From Coriolopsis trogii (Eukaryota; Basidiomycota; Agaricomycetes; Polyporales; Polyporaceae): a DNA stretch of 64,000 nt. Position 1 is the first letter of the stretch. Each line of letters opens with the position of its first letter. A model generated the notes under the pieces. That model did not search any database. It was not told where the DNA came from and saw only the letters and a list, made by a program, of their open reading frames with translations. The DNA is taken from contig JAHYIO010000042.1 of the NCBI GenBank assembly GCA_020543525.1, positions 62,001 to 126,000 on the forward strand, given 5' to 3'. This document shows, one piece after another, positions 22,377-48,741 of this stretch. The translations under genes and the position numbers were made by a program.

Positions 22377-24431
22377 ATGTCGGACGCGACTACGAATACG
22401 ACAGCTTCCTCGACGACCGCATATAGCGAGGCCTGGCTACCTGGGTACGATGGCACTCAGTTCTACACCCGGACCTACCCCGCAGCATCCCCGCGCGCTG
22501 TGCTGCTCTTCGTCCACGGCTTCGTGGAACATGTAGCGCGGTACGAGTGGGCGCATGGTGTGTACGCGTCCAGGGGCATCACCGTCTTCACGTACGACCA
22601 GCGCGGTTTCGGGCGCACGGCCCTCGACAAGGACCACAAGAGCAAGCACAGCTCGTACGGAAAGACGAGCTGGCATGAGCAGCTGAGCGACATCGAGTGG
22701 TGGCTCAAGCATTTGAACAAGGAGTACGCGGGGGTGCCGTTGTTCCTTATGGGTCACTCCATGGTACGTATTGCTTGCTTGCGCCGAGCCTCCCACATGT
22801 CTAGTCTCATGCGCATATATGCATACCCTCACAGGGCGGAGGACTGGTCCTCGCGTTTGGGACGCGCACATCACCTCCACCGTCGAAGGAAACGTTGTCT
22901 CTGCTATCGGGAGTGCTCGCGTCGAGCCCGCTCGTGCTCCAGACGTTCCCCGCGAACAAGCTCGCGAGATTCGTCGGAGGCAAAGCGAGCGGGCTTGTCC
23001 CAGGGGTGCTCATTGACGCACCCATCCCTGTAGAGGTGAGTAAATACACTCGGAGTGCCACATTTGTGCAGCTGAGCCTGAGTGCGGAACTATAGCACCT
23101 CTCGCATGACCCCGTAGCCAACGCTGCGAACGCGAACGACCCGTGGATCATCCAGAAAGGGTCCTTGAAGGGTCTTCATGATATGCTTAGTGGGGTACGT
23201 CTCTCTTGTCTCTCTCACCATGATGCGCGCGAATGCTGTGATGTGCGAGCTGCTCAGCTGCTTACTCGTGGAAATGCCCTGGAGTGACGGCTAGTCCAGC
23301 TGAGGTACCCTGTCGCTTGCACCTTCCCTGTGTGGTCGGTCTACCATCATAATATGCTGCCAAGATCTCGACGAGACTTGCTTCTGATCGTCCCAGGCTT
23401 GACTGCACGCGCGCACGTAGACAATGCTTGCTCATTGATGGTCCCGCGCCAGGGCGAACAACTACTGTGGAACGACTACAAGCACTGGCCTCGTCAGCTT
23501 CCTGTAAGCTTTCGTCTCCTTACCCTGGTGAGGACTAGTATTAACGAGACCCATAGATCTTCATCGTCCACGGTGATGCAGATAAGGTGAGTATTAATCG
23601 AGTATGATGTCTTGCTTCGACGTTTGTGGCTTTCGCTCGATTCGTAGCCATCTGGCTTCGATGATCAGACATTTAGCTGAACGGCCTGTGGAAATGGTAC
23701 AGGCGTTCGCGCATGCATGGACTGGCGAAACGCAGGCTCCTCAGTGTCCGGCGGGGCGGCGACGATGTACAACGGCAACCTGAGCGGGAACAAGAGGTGT
23801 GTGCGGCGCCCGTGCCCCGTCGCCGCACACCCCTCCAGGCTCCCGCTCCCCTGAACTGGATCGACTACATTGTGGTGTCGCGGGATCTGGGACGCGTTTG
23901 AGCCCGCGAGTTGACTGTCATCTCCGCTCCTGTGAGAGTACAAGACTGGTTCGTGGTGAATGGATCGAACAGGCCCTATGGGGCTGTCTCATTATGCCTT
24001 TCTATCTGACCATTAAACGTACCATTTGTCTCAGCATGGCGCGGTAGTTTACGAGGATATAGCTCATACTTCGCGGAGCCTGACGACGGACCTATCAATG
24101 AACCGACTTCTGCGTTTCTAAATGGATGTTGATGTTCTGCCGACGTTATTTGGCCCTTATCTTGGCACGGTCGCTAACGTGGCAACGCCCAGGTTACCTC
24201 GTTTAAGGCGTCGCGAGAGCTATTTGATAAGCTTGACGCGACGGATAAGGAGTTCAAGCCAATCGAGGTGGGTCTTTGTGCATGTCTTGGGGACACTGCG
24301 CTGATGTTACGCGACGACAGGGAGGATTCCACGAGCTGGTGCACGAGCCGGACGGGGTGAAGGAGGCGTTTGTGGACGGGTGTATTTCATGGATGCTGAG
24401 ACACGTCGAGGGTGTTGGGTCGAAGCTCTGA
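22377..24431 (+). CDS. Alpha/beta hydrolase, monoacylglycerol-lipase type, copy 1
   Basis: Serine hydrolase of the S33/MGL family. It is expected to cleave monoacylglycerols or similar esters. Seven exons of the same plan as the three other copies. Landmarks are SEAWLPGYDGTQFYTRTY, the oxyanion HGF in LLFVHGFVEHVARYEWAHG, DQRGFGRTAL, and the nucleophile elbow GHSM|GGG split by intron 1. Exons 3 to 6 have the invariant lengths 33, 17, 10 and 25 codons. The catalytic Asp lies in IFIVHGDADK and the His in GGFHELVHEPDG. Start 22377 is chosen by homology; an in-frame ATG at 22296 would add 27 residues. Intron 5 (23587-24192) is 606 nt, against 52-57 nt in the sister genes, so something has been inserted. 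No frame break. Confidence 0.85.
23794..23835. repeat. Strong hairpin in the enlarged intron of hydrolase copy 1
   Basis: GAGGTGTGTGCGGCG (23794-23808) pairs with CGCCGCACACCCCTC (23821-23835), 14 of 15 positions, around a 12-nt loop. It lies inside the roughly 550-nt extra intron sequence. Confidence 0.7.
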
Positions 24432-31733: not shown

Positions 31734-33082
31734 ATGTCGCCTCCCGCCACAGAGGACTGCTCCGCTCTAACGACTCATGACGGTCAGGAGTCGGTCGCTC
31801 AATCTCCACCCGCGTACACCGAAGCGTGGCTTTCCGGCCCGGACGGTTTGAACTTCTACACGCGTACGTACAGCGCGCCAGACACACCTCGCGCAGTCGT
31901 CCTCTTCGTACACGGATTTGCCGAGTACATTGCACTGCACGAGTGGGCCCACGCTCAATATGCCGCGCGGGGGATTACGCTCTTCGCGTACGACCAGCGC
32001 GGGTTCGGCTGGACGGCGCTCGACTCGGGGCTGCAAGCGCACAAGGGGAAGAGGAGCGACGGGAGCAAGTACTGCAAGACTACACGGAGAGAACAACTTC
32101 AGGATATGGCGTGGTGGCTGGAACATGTGCGGAAGATGTGCCCGGGGTTGCCGGTGTTCTTGGTAGGACCTTCGATGGTTAGCAAGTCTCGGCGGGTCCT
32201 CGGTGGGTATTTACGCTAACGGCAACTGGTAGGGAGGTGCGCTTGCCCTGGAGTATGTTACGCGAACTTCGGACCCAGGACTGGCTGTGGCGGGAGTCAT
32301 TGCGTCCAGTCCGTTTCTTCTGCAAACAGAACCTGCTCCCTGGATAGCGCGGATTGCTGTGCGAATGATGAGCGTCTTGCTGCCCTTCGTGCTGTTTTCT
32401 CTTCCTGCGGACCAGAAGGTACGTACTGTGTTGAATGACATGTATGCGCTCTTGACCTTGAACGCGCGCTCCTCCGTCTCCGTGTTGCCCTTTTCCAGGC
32501 CATGACTCACGATGATGCTGTGAACAAAGCATTATCTCGGGACCCATTCTGCCCAAAGCGAGGATCGTTCAAGGCCATCCAAGACATGCTGAGCGGGGTG
32601 CGTAGCTATCCTTCCGCCTCGGACGGGTTGCACATACCGACTTTTGAAAAGGGCGAGAACCTAATGCGACGTGGGCATCAAGCATGGCCTCGTGATATGC
32701 CCGTATGCTGCTTTTCGGGCTGATCGTTTCCTACGTGAAGCTCACAATTTGGCGACAGTTGTTGATAGTGCACGGTACTGCCGATAAGGTGCCATAATTG
32801 TGGTTCATACCCTATGTCTGGTCGCTGATTGCGATGATAGGTTGCTTCGTGTAAGGCTGCGCGACAGTTCTTCGACAACATTGAAGGCCAAGACAAGACG
32901 TTCATACCCATCGAGGTCAATCCTACTCCGAGATACACCCGTGTGCGATACGGCTCACTCTGACTTCCTTGATGCAGGGGGCGTTCCATGAGTTAGAACA
33001 CGAGTCAGATGGCGTGAAAGAGAAGCTTGTAGAGGACTGTATCGCATGGATTCTGAGGCGTAGTACATTCAAGGTTTCGTAA
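31734..33082 (+). CDS. Alpha/beta hydrolase, monoacylglycerol-lipase type, copy 2
   Basis: Seven exons: 31734-32177, 32233-32418, 32499-32597, 32652-32702, 32759-32788, 32841-32915 and 32978-33082, giving 329 residues. The N-terminus (MSPPATEDCSALTTHDGQES) is about 20 residues longer than in copy 4. The core has YTEAWLSGPDGLNFYTRTYS, VLFVHGFAEYIALHEWAHA, FAYDQRGFGWTAL, and the elbow G-P-S-M|G-G. The position before the nucleophile Ser is Pro here, whereas the other three copies have the usual His. The catalytic Asp is in LLIVHGTADK and His in GAFHELEHESDG, so the triad is intact. Exon 2 is five codons shorter than in the sister genes and the second half is the most diverged, suggesting a changed acyl-binding lid. 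No frame break. Confidence 0.85.
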
Positions 33083-34158
33083 CCATTGTCTGATGATCCC
33101 TAGGGCCTCCGCTGATGCATGATATCGCTTAGCAGTAGGTTCTATATATCTACTTCACACACACTCCTCCGACGTGCTCAAGGGTAAGTGATAATCAACC
33201 TCACCTATCCCTTACCTTGTACTTACTTCGAACTCCTAAGCATCTTCAAGTTGACTGTCTTCAACCAATCCATATCAGATTTTGGAACGCTCCGTTACTG
33301 TCGCCGTGTCACTGCGCTCACCCTTTTAGTGAGCTGATCCATATATTAAGCTAAGTTCAATGTCGGTGTTCGGTTTGCACGCTCCTCTCTGTACGTATAT
33401 CGACCACCTTCCAACTTGGAGGCCCTTTGACACTGCGGACGAGACGCACCCGCTGCGTACCAGCCGTCGATCTCCCGATGAGGAATAAATGACGCAACAT
33501 ATCTGCAGACGTAGTGTTGCAGCACGGAACATGCTTTATTCTTGGAAACATGAGTGCTCTTCCACGCACTTGTTACTCATCCTTTGAGGCCGCTTTTCCG
33601 GCAGGCTCAGCAGCGGTAATATCATTCGGTTCCTTCGATAGAGCAGTACGCTACTAAGTGCACTCTCATTGACAGACATTTCCGCCGATCTCTCTCATTT
33701 CGTTGAGTTCTGGGGCTCCACACTGGTCCACCATCCAACGTGAAGCCGCATGTGTACTGGTATGTTTTCATGATTTGGGATGTAGACGTCACCTTATCAT
33801 GTTCTGAGTGAAGAGCGTGTTGACTTTGGCGACAGGAGGAGCAAACGCTTATTTGGCCACCAGCAAGCCATGCTGAGCACCATCACTATCCATACTCTGA
33901 CTACGCACAAAAGTCATATATAAGGGAGAAATGGAGGGCATCCCAGCTCATCAACCCGTCAGGCGTTAGTGCGCCACACCCAGCCTGCCGCCAGGTTGGC
34001 ACGATTTCAATTTGTAAGTAGTCTACTTCACAGTAACCTTCGGTGCAGTGCCTTGGGCGTCATGGTTTCAGTCTCAAAACTGACTGATGTGCGTTCACAG
34101 GTCTCGATATACTCGCAGAACATTTCCCTGACCCACCATCATTCGACCATCCTGCCTC
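33083..34158. other. Promoter side of HET-1, no gene seen
   Basis: About 1.1 kb without a supported frame. It contains a TATA box listed separately and probably a 5' leader intron (GTAAGTAG..ACAG pattern near 34015-34045). Confidence 0.4.
33917..33924 (+). promoter_or_regulatory. Candidate TATA box of HET-1
   Basis: TATATAAG about 235 bp upstream of the start codon at 34159, in otherwise mixed-composition DNA. The distance allows for a leader intron. Confidence 0.4.
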
Positions 34159-36064
34159 ATGTGGCTCCTCAGTACCAGACGCGCCGAACTTGAGTACTTC
34201 ACGTCTCCTGAGGCCGTCGAGGGTGGATACGCCATACTCTCACATGTATGGGAAAAGGAAGGCGAGCAGACGTTCCAAGACCTCCAGCGAGTTCGCGAGC
34301 AGTGCAAAGGATCCAACAAGAACCCACGCGATTCTGTCGGCGACAAAATCAGACGGTGCTGCGAGCTAGCAGAGCGCTACGGGTTCAAGTGGGTCTGGAT
34401 CGACACCTGCTGCATCGACAAATCGAGCAGTGCTGCACTCTCCGAAGCGATCAATTCCATGTTCCGCTACTACTCTCGCTCCCAGGTATGCTTCGCATAC
34501 CTGCGCGATGTCAACGACATCGATTCCGGGGCCACTCGCGTCGTCAAGAGCAAGTGGTTCTATCGCGGATGGACTCTACAAGAGCTCATCGGCCCCCTGC
34601 ACGTCCTATTCCTCTCCTCGTCGTGGACGATTCTCGGCTTCAAGGCGGACTATGCCTCCGCAATTGAGACTGAGCACGGCATCCCGGCTGCCGTGCTCCA
34701 AATGCAAGCCCACCCTTCGCAATACAGCATCGCCCAACGTATGTCGTGGGCGGCACGTCGGGAGACGACTCGGGTAGAAGACAAGGCGTACTCCCTCCTG
34801 GGTCTCTTTGACATGAATATGCCGACGCTTTATGGGGAAGGGGAGAAGGCCTTCCGGAGGCTTCAGGAGGAGATCATGCGACAGTGCTCCGATACGACAC
34901 TATTCGCGTGGGGACATTGGTGTCCCTCGGACAGGGAAACCCTTTCCAGTCTAGACTCGGACGAGGGAAACCCCACCAAGTCAGGGCTCTTCGCTAGATC
35001 TCCCCGCAACTTCGAGACGAGCGGGAGTATCAGTAGTGATACAATTTCGTTCCAGCCTACGACAGATGTGGTAAGCATTGTTTCATACAACCTCGCTAGA
35101 AAGTCTGAGAATGCTGAAACTTATCCCTATCCTTGATTTCTTCCTACTGAAGGTCCGATTCAAAGCGCCCAGCTCGGCGAGCTTTACCCTTACCCCTCAC
35201 GGCGTCCTCGCAACGCATCTACCTGTCGTCACTGTCTACTCGTCGCAGGGCAAACTCCTAACTTTTGGCGACTTCTCCTGGACCGGACAGGCAGTGGAAG
35301 GGCATCCCGGTTATCGGATCCCCATCTGGTTGATTCTCACCGAAACACAACCCGTGAACTCGACGCGAACATTCCGTGTTGGCTCACTGAGGGCAGGTGA
35401 CCTTCGTGTGCGTCTCCTGTCCACGCAACAGTTGAACCCTGCATACCTCACCTGGTGGAATGCTGCGCGGAGCTATCATTTGCAGGAGGTGTACCTGACG
35501 TCACAACCTCCCAGTAACGACGTGGGCACCCTCGTTCCCATACCTTTACCTCCCCCCTCCTGTGGATTATCTCCCCGTTTTCGCTTCTACGAGGCCACCC
35601 TGAGGAAGCTCCACAACCCCATTCTGGAATGGCAACTCGACAAGTCGGCCACCCGAACCAAAAACACCACGCAACAGTCGTCCCGCGACGACTCACCTAT
35701 CATCTTCCTCTATCGGCATCGCAGCGACCTCACGCATCAGATTGCCGAAGATGCTCATGCATTCATCGCGTTCGGCATCTGTACCACATCGGGAAGCCGC
35801 TCATCCTTCGCCAACGTCGACAACACAGGCATCCGCGGGCCGACGCGCAGAGGGATGGCTCACCACTGGGCCATAGTACGATGGAATCTCATGCCGGATC
35901 ACCTTCCAGTTGTCCATGACTGCCGTACGGACCACATCGAGCGGTGGCCTGTTCCGAAGACTCTCGCACTCGACAAATGGAACTATCTGAGATTCACGCA
36001 ATGTCCTATTAACCCTACAACGACTGTGATTGTAGACATCGAGGAGAAGCGATTACGCACTTGA
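34159..36064 (+). CDS. HET-domain protein HET-1
   Basis: HET (heterokaryon incompatibility, PF06985) proteins trigger growth arrest or cell death in fungal non-self recognition. Exon 1 (34159-35070, 304 codons) is the HET module. Its three family motifs are GGYAILSHVW, WVWIDTCCIDKSSSAALSEAINSM and RGWTLQELIGPLHVL, followed by RMSWAARRETTRVEDKAYSL and the TLYGEGEKAFRRLQEEI tail. The intron (GTAAGC..TGAAG, 82 nt) is phase 0. Exon 2 (35153-36064) is a 303-residue C-terminal region beginning VRFKAPSSASFTLTPHGVLA, with WWNAARSYHLQEVYL and THQIAEDAHAFIAFG. I do not recognise this second domain; it resembles that of HET-4. Total 607 residues, complete. No NACHT, WD or ankyrin repeats are attached, so it is a stand-alone HET protein. 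Confidence 0.88.
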
Positions 36065-36853: not shown

Positions 36854-38147
36854 ATGGCAAGCATTTCGGACTTTGTACCTCCTGTACAGACATATGCGGA
36901 AGCGTGGCTTCTCGGTCACGATGGAATTAAGTTCTACACGCGGACTTACGCAGCGTCCTCACCACAGGCGGTCGTCATCTTTGTCCACGGATTCGGGGAC
37001 CACGTAGGACGCTACGAGTGGGTCCATGCTGTCTATGCCTCCAAGGGAATCACCGCCTTTGCATTTGGCCAGCGCGGCTTTGGCCTCACAGCGCTTGACA
37101 CCAGCGGACAGAGGAGTCAGGAAAGTCAGCACGGGCAGACCAGCTGGTCGGAGCAGTTCGCGGACATGGAGTGGTGGCTCAAGTTTGTGGTCGATCAGTA
37201 CCCGGGGCTCCCGGTGTACCTGATGGGTCACTCTATGGTGCGTTATAATTTGTACTCTCTGGACGCTGGCTAAATGGGTGTTACAGGGCGGTGGCCTCGT
37301 CCTTGGTTTTGCTACGCGTTCATCCGCCCCGCCCGCAGAAGAGAGCAGGGGGAGAGTCGACGAGTAGGACGAGAGGCGCCGATGCGATGACTCCAGCCAA
37401 AAGCCTTACGCTCTCTTTGGGTTCCTTCTTAATGTCGCAAGCAAAATGTTTCCGAACCTCCTTCACGCTGCCCCGGCTGATCGTAGTGCAAGTGCATTGT
37501 GCCGGGTGCGCATATATGGTGTCTGACGGTTCGACTTGTCATATTAGGCTTTCTCGCGCGATCCGATACTCAACGCATCAAACGACATGGATCCCCTTTG
37601 TGAGCGAAAAGGAACCCTGAGATGCTTCAACGACATGATCAGCGGTGTACGCACTATCCATTTCTATGGTCCTCGCCGCACGTATTCCGGCGCTGATGCC
37701 ATCCTTTGTCAGGGAAGGCTGCTACTGCAGAATGACTACAAGAATTGGCCTGCTGATCTTCCAGTTCGTTTATCAGTCGCTCGTCCGGGGTCCCGCTCTT
37801 TGCTGACTTCTTGATTTGCACGCAGATACTCATTGCCCATGGTACAGCAGACAAGGTTAGTCTTGCTTCGGTTCGGTGAGTTCGTTCTAAGCGTTATCTG
37901 ATTCCCTTGTAGGCCACATCGCACAAAGCATCTCAGGAATTCTATGAGAAATTGGACGCGCACGAGAAGGAGCTCATGTTGGTGAAGGTGCTTCTCCTTT
38001 TTATATTTTTGTGACCTCGCTTGAGCATTTACGCAAGCATCGCAGGATGCGTACCACGACCTGACTGAAGAGCCTGACGGCGTGAAGGAGAAGTTCGTCG
38101 ACGATTGCGTCGGTTGGATTTTGAGGCATGTAGCAAGTTGCGAGTGA
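36854..38147 (+). pseudogene. Alpha/beta hydrolase copy 3, broken by a 75-bp inversion in exon 2
   Basis: Same seven-exon plan as the sister genes. Exon 1 (36854-37237) runs from MASISDFVPPVQTYAEAWLL to the elbow GHSM. Exon 2 (37287-37487, 67 codons as in copies 1 and 4) reads GGGLVLGFATRSSAPPAEES, then goes into AGGGGGAGAG..GAGTAG, a stop. The segment 37341-37415 is inverted; on the other strand it gives ESVRLLAGVIASAPLVLL and continues in frame into ALFGFLLNVASKMFPNLL. Exons 3-7 keep the lengths 33, 17, 10 and 25 codons plus the end, with ILIAHGTADK (Asp) and DAYHDLTEEPDG (His). Other oddities are GQRGFG in place of DQRGFG, and a GC donor (GCAAGT) after exon 2. No other disabling change is present, so the break looks young, or the inversion exists in only some alleles. 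Confidence 0.82.
37341..37415. other. Micro-inversion bounded by GAGAGC/GCTCTC
   Basis: The block is exactly 75 bp (25 codons) and begins and ends with a 6-bp inverted repeat, GAGAGC at 37341-37346 and GCTCTC at 37410-37415. Its reverse complement encodes the conserved segment matching ESVSLVAGVVATSPLVLL of hydrolase copy 4. Reading frame is kept on both flanks. Confidence 0.88.
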
Positions 38148-38723: not shown

Positions 38724-40021
38724 ATGTCGTCCACAAGTCCTCCGCGGGCATACACTGAAGCGTGGCTACCCGGACGCGATGGCCTCAATTTCTACACCCG
38801 TACGTACGCCGCACCTACCCCTCAGGCTGCCATAGTCTTTGTACACGGCTTCGCGGAGTACGTGGGACGCTACGAGTGGGCGCACGGAGTGTACGCGTCC
38901 AAGGGCATTACCGTGTTCGCTTTCGATCAGCGCGGATTCGGCCTCACAGCGCTCGACACCACGGGGAAGAAGAGCAAGGAGAGCAAGTACGGGAAGACGA
39001 GCTGGGCGGACCAGTTCGCGGACATTGAGTGGTGGCTGAAGTACGTCGCAGACCAGTACCCGCGGCTACCCGTCTACTTGATGGGACACTCCATGGTGCG
39101 TCTTGTCCATATCCCTTAATTCTCCCGCCGTTCAAGATGCATGCCAGGGCGGCGCTCTATCCCTCGGCTTCGTCACTCGACCGTCTCCTCCCCCTACGAA
39201 AGAAAGCGTATCACTTGTAGCGGGTGTTGTCGCTACAAGCCCTCTTGTATTGCTCTCCAACCCTCCCTTGGCCGTTGTGCGATTCGTGGGCGAGCTAGTC
39301 AGCAAGGTGCTCCCAGCTTTTGTCGTCTCTGCGCCTGTCGATCCCAATGTATGTAGCGTGTCGATTTGGTATGCATATGTGCTGTCTAATGTCTCTTGGC
39401 TGTGATTCTAGGCTCTCTCGCACGACCCGGTCCTCAACGCGGCGAATGCCAGAGATCAACTCTGTCCGCAGAAAGGCTCGCTGAAAGGCATCAGCGACAT
39501 GATTGGCGGGGTGCGTCCATCGTACAGGGCAGAGTGCCGCTTTGTTGACATTGCGTGTGAGACAGGGCGAGCAACTGCTCCAGAATGACTACAAGAACTG
39601 GCCAGCGGACCTTCCCGTACGTCGTCCAAGACACTATCCATCGTTTCCGCTGATTGATCCATTTCTGTAGGTACTGATCGCCCACGGCACCGAAGACAGG
39701 GTGAGAGAGTCTCAATGCAGGTCGCACGCGGGTGGAACTGATAGACATCCCACAAGGTCACGTCGTACAAGGCATCTAAGCAGTTCTTCGACAAAGTATG
39801 GGCGCACGACAAGGAACTTATGTCTATCGAGGTATGCTTCTACCGCTCTGGCCAGATCGAGGTCCTCACATGCGTGTGTTCAGGACGGATTCCACGAGCT
39901 CGTCAACGAGCCGAATGGCGTTAAAGAGAGTTTCGTTGACGGCTGCATTTCCTGGATTCTCAAGCATGCCTCAACTCGTGATGAGAGCGCTCTCACGAGG
40001 ATGTCCGGACCCGCATCATGA
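38724..40021 (+). CDS. Alpha/beta hydrolase, monoacylglycerol-lipase type, copy 4
   Basis: The best reference copy of the group. Exons: 38724-39095, 39148-39348, 39412-39510, 39566-39616, 39671-39700, 39757-39831 and 39884-40021, giving 321 residues. Features are YTEAWLPGRDGLNFYTRTYA, IVFVHGFAEYVGRYEWAHG, FAFDQRGFGLTAL, nucleophile in MGHSM|GGAL (Ser at about residue 123), VLIAHGTEDR with the catalytic Asp, and DGFHELVNEPNG with the His. No signal peptide or membrane helix, so probably cytosolic or lipid-droplet associated as in yeast Yju3 (inference). It is closest to copy 3, next door; the two share QNDYKNWPADLP. Intact. Confidence 0.88.
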
Positions 40022-46140: not shown

Positions 46141-48110
46141 CTACTCCGATGGTGTGGCGGTGATGAGCCTCATGTTGCACAGGCGCGATGCGACTGCGGC
46201 TGCGGAGGAGCCTGTCCGGGCGATGTCCAGCTGTTCCAGCGATGGGATTGTAACCTTCGCCTGCTCGAGCAAGCGTTCGTAGACGATGCCTTTCAGCTCC
46301 ATGTGCACGATGAGGGTCGTCTCAGGGCTCAGCCTGCAGGGTGTGAACGAGAGCTTCACTGCCCTATCGGCGTCTCCAAACGTCTTCTCGCGCGAGGGCC
46401 ACGAGGCGATGTTGTGTTTCGCGCAATCGTGTCCACCCGAGTCTCCCGCAAAGCCTTCTCTGTGGCGGATGCGCACGTTCGCCCAGGGAGACCCAGGACT
46501 ATTCGCGCCTTGTGAACAAAGGCCCAAGTCAAGATGGATGAACTCTTTTTTGGACCAGTGGACAAACTGAATGTGTTTCGAGCGCCCCGTGTGTTCGCAG
46601 GATGACGGCAGAGCTTGAAATCCGGTCGTCGTCAGCCTCGCGAGGAGCCAGTGAGGCAGACGGAACGCAACATCGACCGGGGAGTTGTGCGTGAGGTGAG
46701 CGAACGGGGCAGCGGGAGATGTCCAGACCTCGGGACGATAAATCAGGTAGATCGTGCGCCACTCCGCCTTGACGGCCTCCCCTCTGATGCGTAAATTATG
46801 TAGGTCCGTACCGAGGGAGATCATGCGAAAACGTTGGGATCTCTGACAGTGTCCCTCCCCTTGCTGGAATAACGCGCTGGTGTGGTATGAGGGACGAGTG
46901 GGGTCGTGATATGGGGAGGTACAACGGTTTAGGACAAGCCCTAGGTGTTCGCCGTGGCTTTCGCATAGGAGCACGGCGATTGTGTAACCCGCGGCATCGA
47001 TGACGGGCACCCGAAATTTGACACCATAGTTGCGGACAGCGAACCTTGGGAGCTCGACGCTACCAAATGGTCCCTCTGCTCGTCTGCGTTCATCTACCGC
47101 CTGAGATAACATGAGTCTCGAAGGATACATGGAGTAAGGGAATGACATACATGATGTATCACGTCCCATTGGTAAGGCAGGTATGGCTGCAGCGGATGTG
47201 ACAGTTTGGGACTATAGTGCGTCCCGTGCCCGAAAGGGGCAGGTGAATTAGCAAGGAGGTATTGCATCTCATCCAGAAACTCGTGTGTATCGTGTTCATG
47301 CCAAACGTGGAGAGTAACGTGGTTGAGGTGTCCTTGCGGGATCCATGGGCCCCAGGCAAAGAGACTAGTATCGGCGGTTTGCTTCATGATCTCCAGCTGC
47401 AGTCTGTGGAACGCCTGACGTCCCTCTCCATAGATGGTAGGCATATTCACGTTGAAAAGGCCCATGAGACAGTACGCCTCATCTTCAATCCGCGTAGTCT
47501 TGCGTTTCGACGCCCAGGACATGCGAACAGCGAGGCTCACCTGAAAGTACTGAGTTTCGCGGGTGAGGATGGCGGTGCTGATGTCCGTGATATTGGAGAG
47601 CAGCGGTGCCAGCTGGGCCTTCGTACCGAGCACCTTCCAATCCTTGGAAAGGAAGACGACAATGGCGGGGGCGATGAGCTCCTGCAGAGTCCAACCTCTC
47701 GTGTGCCACTTGCTGGTCCTGAACGCCGACCCCGGACTATCCAGTACACAGTCTCTCGATACGTCCGCAAGGAAGGCGTAGCAGATCTCAGCTTGGGAGT
47801 ACCAGGTGAACATGGAGTTGATTGCTTCCGATAGCTCCGTGCTGCTCGTCTTGTCGATGCAACAGGAATCCACCCAGCCCCACATGTAGCCATCCTTCTC
47901 CGCTAGGATGCAGAACTCACAAATCTTTGCCGATACCAGGTCGCGCGGATTTTGGCCCGTGCTGGCGCACTGTGTTCGGATGGCTTGAACCTCTTGGAAG
48001 GACTGTTCGTAGGTACCCCAGGTGTGCGACAATGCTACGTATCCTCCGTCGACGGCACCGGCATCCGGGAAAAAGTGCAGCTCGGCACGGCTCGTACTGA
48101 GCAGCCACAT
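46141..48110 (-). CDS. HET-domain protein HET-3
   Basis: Start at 48110 (MWLLSTSRAELHFFPDAGAV), the same opening as the other HET genes. Exon 1 (48110-47151, 320 codons) has GGYVALSHTW, WGWVDSCCIDKTSSTELSEA, RGWTLQELIAPAIVV, RMSWASKRKTTRIEDEAYCL and TIYGEGRQAFHRLQLEI. Phase-0 intron GTATGT..TCTCAG (50 nt). Exon 2 (47100-46141) begins AVDERRRAEGPFGSVELPRF. It then gives NYGVKFRVPVIDAAGYTIAV, GEHLGLVLNRC, AEWRTIYLIYRP, EFIHLDLGLC and FGDADRAVKLSFT, parallel to HET-2. Total 639 residues. HET-2 and HET-3 are neighbouring, same-strand paralogues, consistent with tandem duplication followed by strong divergence. Complete. Confidence 0.88.
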
Positions 48111-48741
48111 GGTCTGGGTCGCCTGCGAGACCCCATACGTCAATTTTACAACCTCGGAGGAGCGCATGCAACATTCTAAGTAATTCACCTCTGTGAACGT
48201 AGTAGGGGCAAACGTTCGGCGGGAGGTGGCAGAAGCAAAGGCGTAGTCGCCGAGAGGAATGCTGCCATGCTCCGATATAAGTATCGTCCACCTTCGCGAC
48301 GTCTTGACAGGAGCTATATGCGTCCTCACGATCCACCTCAGATTCCACGGCCAACGAATCTTGATTAGACGCGCCGAATTCACCAAATGTTGACCGACGT
48401 GAACATGCTCTCAGGGGCCATAGAGTCCTAGCATAAGGCGTGATGCCTTGAGGAGTGGAAGCACGAAGAGGAGAGAGGAGGAGAACAGCATGTGGCAGTC
48501 GACGTTGAACGTTGGAGGTGTGTTCAGTGTTCACGTTCTCAAAGCGCCAGCGTCAAGCAACTCACGCTTAGCGCCCGAATCATCAACTACTGGATGAGCC
48601 TCCACGCCCATAATAACATTGTCATGCCAGCTTCCTATCAGCTTACCCCAAAGAAAGAACATCAGCTTCAGAATCAGACGAGCAGTGTTCGAGCAAATCT
48701 TGGCGACTGTTTCTGTACAGATGAACAATACTAAGGCCACC
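48111..48741. other. Spacer between HET-3 and the nucleotidase-like gene
   Basis: 630 bp forming the HET-3 promoter side. The open frame continuing upstream of the HET-3 Met to 48386 lacks an ATG at its far end and is not needed. Confidence 0.4.

What the first reader, a model, noticed from the sequence alone, without database searches (positions are those of the whole stretch)
37341..37415. In-place 75-bp inversion that silences a hydrolase gene
Hydrolase copy 3 has a stop codon in exon 2. Reverse-complementing exactly the 75 bp between GAGAGC and GCTCTC restores 25 codons that match the sister genes (AGVIASAPLVLL against AGVVATSPLVLL in copy 4), and the frame continues on both sides. All other exons keep their lengths. 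A break this clean, between 6-bp inverted repeats and with no later damage, is rare. It may be a young mutation, a flip between alleles or nuclei, or an assembly error at a hairpin.
Basis: seen in the sequence. Interest (0 to 1): 0.82.

Follow-up and report, generated by a model that had tools for sequence, protein, structure and literature searches.

The report
Flipped 75-base stretch disables fungal hydrolase
In one of several neighbouring fungal lipase-like genes a short stretch of about 75 bases sits back to front between two tiny mirror-image repeats and introduces a stop signal; this is a clean, long example of a known kind of copying error, not a new kind of system.

Summary
Window 37341-37415 lies in exon 2 of a monoglyceride-lipase-like hydrolase gene (c3, 36854-38147). 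As it stands it gives an in-frame TAG (37365-37367). Read on the opposite strand, in register, it gives 25 codons that fit 68 aligned homologues (+33.6 bits, against -45.2 as it stands) and match sister gene c4 at 45 of 75 bases, against 26 of 75 forward. A scan of 18,525 intervals places the flip at the same spot. The inverted repeats are 8 bp, not 6, so any interval from 63 to 79 bp gives the same product. The three sisters tested lack the arms. No other stop or frameshift was found, so the flip is probably recent, but the gene is not pristine: D72G in a conserved motif, a GC splice donor, signs of faster protein evolution. Best explanation: an in-place microinversion by template switching (or microhomology-mediated break-induced replication) at short inverted repeats, turning a duplicate hydrolase into a pseudogene. 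Such events are published for apes and, at 2-5 bp, for yeast coding genes. Assembly error, or a flip in one nucleus only, cannot be excluded without reads.

The parts
36854..38147 (+). Hydrolase copy 3 (c3): seven phase-0 exons 36854-37237, 37287-37487, 37548-37646, 37713-37763, 37826-37855, 37913-37987, 38046-38147; product truncated after 154 residues
   Evidence: Gene model made by hand against c4; Hydrolase_4 PF12146 in exon 1, part 36878-37237; c4 matches monoglyceride lipase 4zwn at 6e-20
37287..37487 (+). Exon 2 of c3, 201 bp as in c1, c4 and c5
37341..37415 (-). Inverted segment; minus strand encodes 25 family-like codons. Product-equivalent intervals run from 37347-37409 (63 bp) to 37339-37417 (79 bp)
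   Evidence: Profile score +33.6 against -45.2 bits and scan of 18,525 intervals; 45/75 against 26/75 identity to c4
37339..37346 (+). Left arm of the perfect inverted repeat, AAGAGAGC
   Evidence: arm match 8/8 in c3, 4/8 in c4, 2/8 in c1, 2/8 in c5
37410..37417 (+). Right arm, GCTCTCTT
37365..37367 (+). In-frame TAG stop created inside the inverted segment
37067..37069 (+). GGC (Gly72) where at least 95% of 68 homologues have Asp in the DQRGFG-type motif
37488..37493 (+). GC-type splice donor GCAAGT after exon 2; c1, c2, c4, c5 have GT here
38724..40021 (+). Sister copy 4 (c4), intact seven-exon model, segment in ancestral orientation (39202-39276)
22377..24431 (+). Sister copy 1 (c1), segment in ancestral orientation at 22889
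31734..33082 (+). Sister copy 2 (c2), exon 2 of 62 codons, segment in ancestral orientation at 32272

Best explanation
A monoglyceride-lipase-like gene in a clustered family of a polypore-type fungus suffered a single in-place microinversion of 63-79 bp. The flip runs between two 8-bp inverted repeats that the three sister genes tested do not have. The likely route is a template switch: the nascent strand, having copied the first arm, pairs with the second arm on the opposite strand, copies the spacer backwards, reaches the first arm again and returns to the original template at the second arm. Microhomology-mediated break-induced replication would give the same product. The flip keeps length and frame but puts a TAG in codon 27 of exon 2. 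The product ends after 154 residues and lacks the later catalytic Asp and His stretches, so the copy is a recent pseudogene in the sequenced genome. Shown: the flip, its boundaries, the ancestral orientation, the arms, the stop. Inferred: that it is real in the living strain, the replication mechanism, and the loss of function.
For: Minus strand fits the family profile at +33.6 bits; plus strand -45.2; no shuffle reaches it. DNA identity to c4 45/75 reversed, 26/75 forward, like the flanks (31/54 and 35/72); by codon position 14, 21, 10 of 25, as in coding sequence. Nine product-equivalent intervals between the 8-bp arms score 84.2 bits against 5.4 as present; three slightly higher ones (81-85 bp, up to 86.8) share the centre and end within three bases of the arms. 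Arms of 8 or more at this radius: 2 of 63,880 window centres, of which this site by its geometry is one. Sisters c1, c4, c5 lack the arms (c2 not tested). No other stop or frameshift in 288 codons. Published microinversions have the same anatomy (PMC8755829; PMC8604942).
Against: No reads, strains, RNA or orthologue could be seen. The spacer (63) is longer than in the 59 human-chimpanzee cases (17-33 nt) and the yeast coding cases (2-5 bp); [quoted passage not shown] The hairpin is not unusually stable (z -1.0). Eight-bp inverted repeats are common here (14 with spacer 53-73 in the window), so the arms do not make a hot spot. No second case appeared in the 256 kb checked, but that scan was weak.
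Confidence: 0.77

Rival explanations
1. Assembly or consensus error: the strain carries the ancestral orientation and the flip arose in silico or in library preparation.
For: No reads available; the site is a potential hairpin; a product this clean is also what an artificial flip would look like.
Against: 39 contigs for 38.8 Mb suggests long reads (inferred), and a 79-bp feature is spanned by ordinary reads. An 8-bp repeat is too short to confuse usual assembly k-mers (general knowledge). The hairpin is ordinary. Signs of relaxed evolution in c3 would suit a dying copy.
Confidence: 0.1
2. Heterozygous or segregating flip: one nucleus or allele carries each orientation and the assembly shows one. 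This is compatible with the mechanism of the best explanation.
For: Arms are intact, so the flip is structurally reversible; a yeast spacer (SPO75) changed form more than once among strains (PMC8604942). Basidiomycete dikaryons carry two genomes (recalled).
Against: One copy of the locus found in the assembly; nothing in hand speaks for a second allele.
Confidence: 0.2
3. Old inactivation: c3 had long been a pseudogene and the inversion is one hit among many.
For: c3 branch omega 0.36 against 0.045 elsewhere (lnL gain 4.9), not distinguishable from 1. More unique residues than c4: 42 v 20, 40 v 18, 37 v 21 with three outgroups. D72G and a GC donor.
Against: No other stop or frameshift. Under neutrality 0.12 substitutions per site would leave no stop in 3.6% of simulations, and 0.03 would leave neither stop nor indel in 3.4% if indels run at 0.1 per substitution, which is assumed. 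If c4 also gets its own omega, c3 falls to 0.164 beside 0.099 for c4. Silent distances are saturated (dS about 1.9). A control pair (c1, c5) failed rate equality with one of two outgroups.
Confidence: 0.12
4. Functional recoding: alternative splicing removes the flipped part and the gene still makes a useful protein.
For: All exons are phase 0, so skipping exon 2 keeps frame; six in-frame GT-AG pairs with a donor inside exon 2 would bypass the stop.
Against: The six use only two donors, GTCCTT and GTCGAC, neither close to the usual fungal donor (recalled), and each loses the strand after the nucleophile motif that nearly all 68 homologues keep.
Confidence: 0.03

Closest known systems
[quoted passage not shown] abstract, passages and first part of the Discussion seen)
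   Same: Precise in-place reverse complement with inverted repeats at the edges (3-75 nt per flank there; 8 here).
   Different: 17-33 nt long there, 63-79 here; ape genomes there, an exon of a fungal gene with a stop created here.
IR spacer inversions in coding genes of Saccharomyces cerevisiae by template switching (Abraham and Hazkani-Covo 2021, PMC8604942; abstract and passages seen)
   Same: Fungal coding sequence; spacer between perfect inverted repeats flips; in nine of ten cases the arms were unchanged.
   Different: [quoted passage not shown] 63 bp, 8-bp arms, 25 codons and a stop here.
Short-range template switches in great apes (PMC7954356; passages seen)
   Same: Reverse-complement tract of local origin; the tract length here is inside the range given there (median 12, maximum 128).
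   Different: Only 5.5% of those gold-standard events leave the length unchanged, as this one does.
Small hairpin-associated inversions of chloroplast genomes (search listing only)
   Same: Short segment flips between inverted repeats (recalled).
   Different: Organelle DNA; none of those papers was opened.

Membership tests
Inverted-repeat-flanked microinversion | Segment is the reverse complement of the ancestral segment, in place, length unchanged | tested here: met
   Exon 2 is 201 bp in c1, c3, c4, c5; reversed identity 45/75 v 26/75; profile +33.6 v -45.2. Ancestral state comes from paralogues and homologues, not from an orthologue.
Inverted-repeat-flanked microinversion | Perfect or near-perfect inverted repeats at the edges | tested here: met
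   8-bp perfect arms at the edges; 2 of 63,880 centres have as much at this radius.
Inverted-repeat-flanked microinversion | Real in the organism's DNA | not testable with these tools
   No reads or second strain held.
Template-switch product | Arms act as microhomology for both switches; boundaries inside the arms | tested here: inconclusive
   Boundaries lie in or within three bases of the arms, but break repair at the same arms gives the same product.
Monoglyceride-lipase-like alpha/beta hydrolase (PF12146) | Family profile and GHSMGG nucleophile motif | tested here: met
   PF12146 1.1e-16 for part of exon 1 of c3; c4 against 4zwn 6e-20; c3 keeps GHSM-GGG. Enzyme activity not tested.
Processed or long-decayed pseudogene | Several disabling lesions or loss of introns | tested here: not met
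   Introns kept; one clear disabling lesion, the flip; effects of D72G and the GC donor are unknown.

The most novel reading that the evidence does not exclude
The flip is a segregating, reversible on/off state: since both 8-bp arms survive, nuclei or strains of the fungus could carry either orientation and switch the hydrolase back on by a second flip.
Probability: 0.05. Interest if true: 0.75.

Novelty: new member of a known kind. Interest (0 to 1): 0.4.

Why it matters
It is an unusually legible natural product of flipping between short inverted repeats: the ancestral orientation, both boundaries and the arms can all be read because the segment is protein-coding and its paralogues stand nearby. 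If real in the strain, it shows that the process can disable a fungal gene in one step at a length (63-79 bp) well above the yeast coding-sequence cases (2-5 bp). Annotation would probably take it for a diverged exon or a nonsense pseudogene and miss the cause.

Tried and rejected
Naming the organism: two protein searches gave polypore relatives (Fomes, Lentinus, Daedaleopsis, Trametes) at up to 55% for c3 over its full length and 66% for a neighbouring DUF4246 protein, among the 120 hits listed each time. No listed hit is near identity, so no orthologue of c3 could be compared.

Looking for more microinversions: self-comparison of 256 kb of contig C39 (134 HSPs, 39,616 aligned bp) gave no window at the 75% threshold; the best gap match was 72% over 18 bases. 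That threshold would not have caught c3 itself (60% reversed to c4), so this says little.

Hairpin as hot spot: not favoured; folding z -1.0, 33 of 200 shuffles as good. Recombinase sites: not searched for; thought unlikely with 8-bp arms. Splice rescue: six weak options.

Literature, open-access library only: searches (1 paper; 1; 2; 0) listed no paper titled on a fungal microinversion; one search listed 15 of 4,589. Only three papers were opened. No structure model was run.

Full report
What is there. The window is bases 62001-126000 of contig C39 (802 kb) of a 38.8-Mb genome in 39 contigs. Closest named proteins are from polypores: 55% to Fomes fomentarius for c3 and 66% to Lentinus tigrinus for a neighbouring protein. 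Gene c3 (36854-38147) has seven phase-0 exons in a hand-made model. Exons 2-6 equal those of c4 in length; exons 1 and 7 do not. The family is alpha/beta hydrolase PF12146, and the nearest solved structures to c4 by sequence are 4zwn and 4zxf, both named monoglyceride lipase (6e-20; yeast origin recalled). Substrate was not tested.

The flip. Exon 2 of c3 runs in frame to 37340, then reads ESRGRVDE and a TAG at 37365-37367. The minus strand of 37341-37415 reads ESVRLLAGVIASAPLVLLVDSPPAL without a stop, and the plus strand resumes family-like at 37416. I aligned c4 and c3, the segment masked with X, with the 68 top-ranked of 180 homologues; 120 were listed and ranks 69-120 were left out. Of the 68, 57 bear names of fungi and 11 come from unnamed sources. 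In that place the homologues typically read like ESVKLLSGVIASSPLLLQT-P; P0018 lacks most of the segment and several have shorter forms. Scored against this profile, which holds none of the window's genes, the minus reading gets +33.6 bits, c4 46.1 and the present plus reading -45.2. The other eight shifted readings tested score -42.8 to -65.6, and 0 of 20,000 residue-order shuffles reach the minus reading. Independently, at DNA level, the reversed segment matches c4, c1 and c5 at 45, 36 and 37 of 75 bases, and forward at 26, 24 and 22. None of 20,000 shuffles reaches the reversed value in any of the three comparisons.

Boundaries. Of 18,525 intervals in exon 2 scored as if reversed, the best share one centre: three of 81-85 bp (86.3-86.8 bits) and nine of 63-79 bp (84.2 each, identical products), against 5.4 as present. 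The nine lie within the perfect 8-bp inverted repeat AAGAGAGC / GCTCTCTT at 37339-37346 and 37410-37417, spacer 63. An arm of 8 or more at this radius occurs at 2 of 63,880 window centres, of which this site by its geometry is one, so the coincidence of arms and boundaries is unlikely to be chance. Such repeats are nonetheless common anywhere nearby: 122 with spacer 20-150 in the window against a mean of 96 (78-109) in ten block shuffles, and 14 with spacer 53-73. A second 8-bp pair even lies in the same 201 bases. At aligned places c4, c1 and c5 match in 4, 2 and 2 of 8 arm positions; c2, with its shorter exon, and the two copies on other contigs were not tested.

Age and state of the gene. 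No other stop or frameshift is present in 288 unmasked codons. Neutral simulation gives a 3.4% chance of neither stop nor indel at 0.03 substitutions per site, with an assumed 0.1 indels per substitution; without indels the 3.6% point is 0.12. The inactivation is therefore probably recent compared with the duplication. Against a pristine gene: c3 departs from the family at 13 of 91 columns conserved at 80% (c4 at 4; family median 6, though the five most divergent members depart at 16-37), at 5 of 50 at 90% (c4 2), and at 1 of 33 at 95%, D72G (c4 0). Its exon-2 donor is GCAAGT where c1, c2, c4 and c5 have GT; GC donors can work (recalled). Its branch has omega 0.36 against 0.045 (lnL -4613.36 v -4618.26), not separable from 1 (-4613.88). 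But if c4 also gets its own omega, c3 drops to 0.164 beside 0.099 for c4 and 0.017 elsewhere (-4611.67), so the excess special to c3 is uncertain. It has more unique residues than c4 with all three outgroups (p 0.005, 0.004, 0.036), while four-fold sites show no consistent excess. One of two control comparisons also gave p 0.0065. Silent sites are saturated. I read this, with caution, as some relaxation of constraint; its order relative to the flip is open.

Mechanism. Published microinversions are usually born precise and flanked by inverted repeats at their edges; template switching or microhomology-mediated break-induced replication is proposed (PMC8755829: abstract, passages and first part of the Discussion). 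In yeast coding genes ten spacer inversions of 2-5 bp were found, and one spacer (SPO75) changed form repeatedly (PMC8604942: abstract and passages). In great apes reverse tracts reach 128 nt and 5.5% of gold-standard events leave length unchanged (PMC7954356: passages). The present case has the same anatomy with a longer spacer and a disabling outcome. The hairpin is not specially stable, so I favour a rare replication error over a hot spot. The effect on the enzyme is inferred: 154 residues remain, with the nucleophile serine but without the later catalytic Asp and His stretches (roles recalled; positions by the c4 alignment to 4zwn).

What stays open. The one copy found in the assembly is in the present orientation. 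No reads, strains, RNA or orthologue could be examined, so assembly error (about 0.1) and a flip limited to one nucleus or to some strains (about 0.2) remain. It is a new, long and legible member of a known class.

Noticed in passing
window 31734-33082 (c2): Sister copy 2 reads GPSMGG instead of GHSMGG at the nucleophile motif and has an exon 2 shorter by five codons; it may be altered or inactive though its frame is open.
   Followed up: partly
window 22377-24431 (c1): Copy 1 has 606 bases between exons 5 and 6 and 258 between exons 3 and 4, longer than its other introns; possibly insertions.
   Followed up: no
window 34132-35133 (+) and 47097-48410 (-): Two open frames with a HET (heterokaryon incompatibility) domain stand on either side of the c3-c4 pair.
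   Followed up: no
G000:C39 190175-193973 and 227255-231064: Inverted pair of 3.8-kb copies at 85% identity, perhaps a mobile element; also a 569-bp direct pair at 99.8% (231233 and 237169).
   Followed up: no
window 37296-37303 and 37366-37373: A second perfect 8-bp inverted repeat (CTCGTCCT / AGGACGAG, spacer 62) has one arm inside the flipped segment; in the ancestral orientation the two would be direct repeats.
   Followed up: partly
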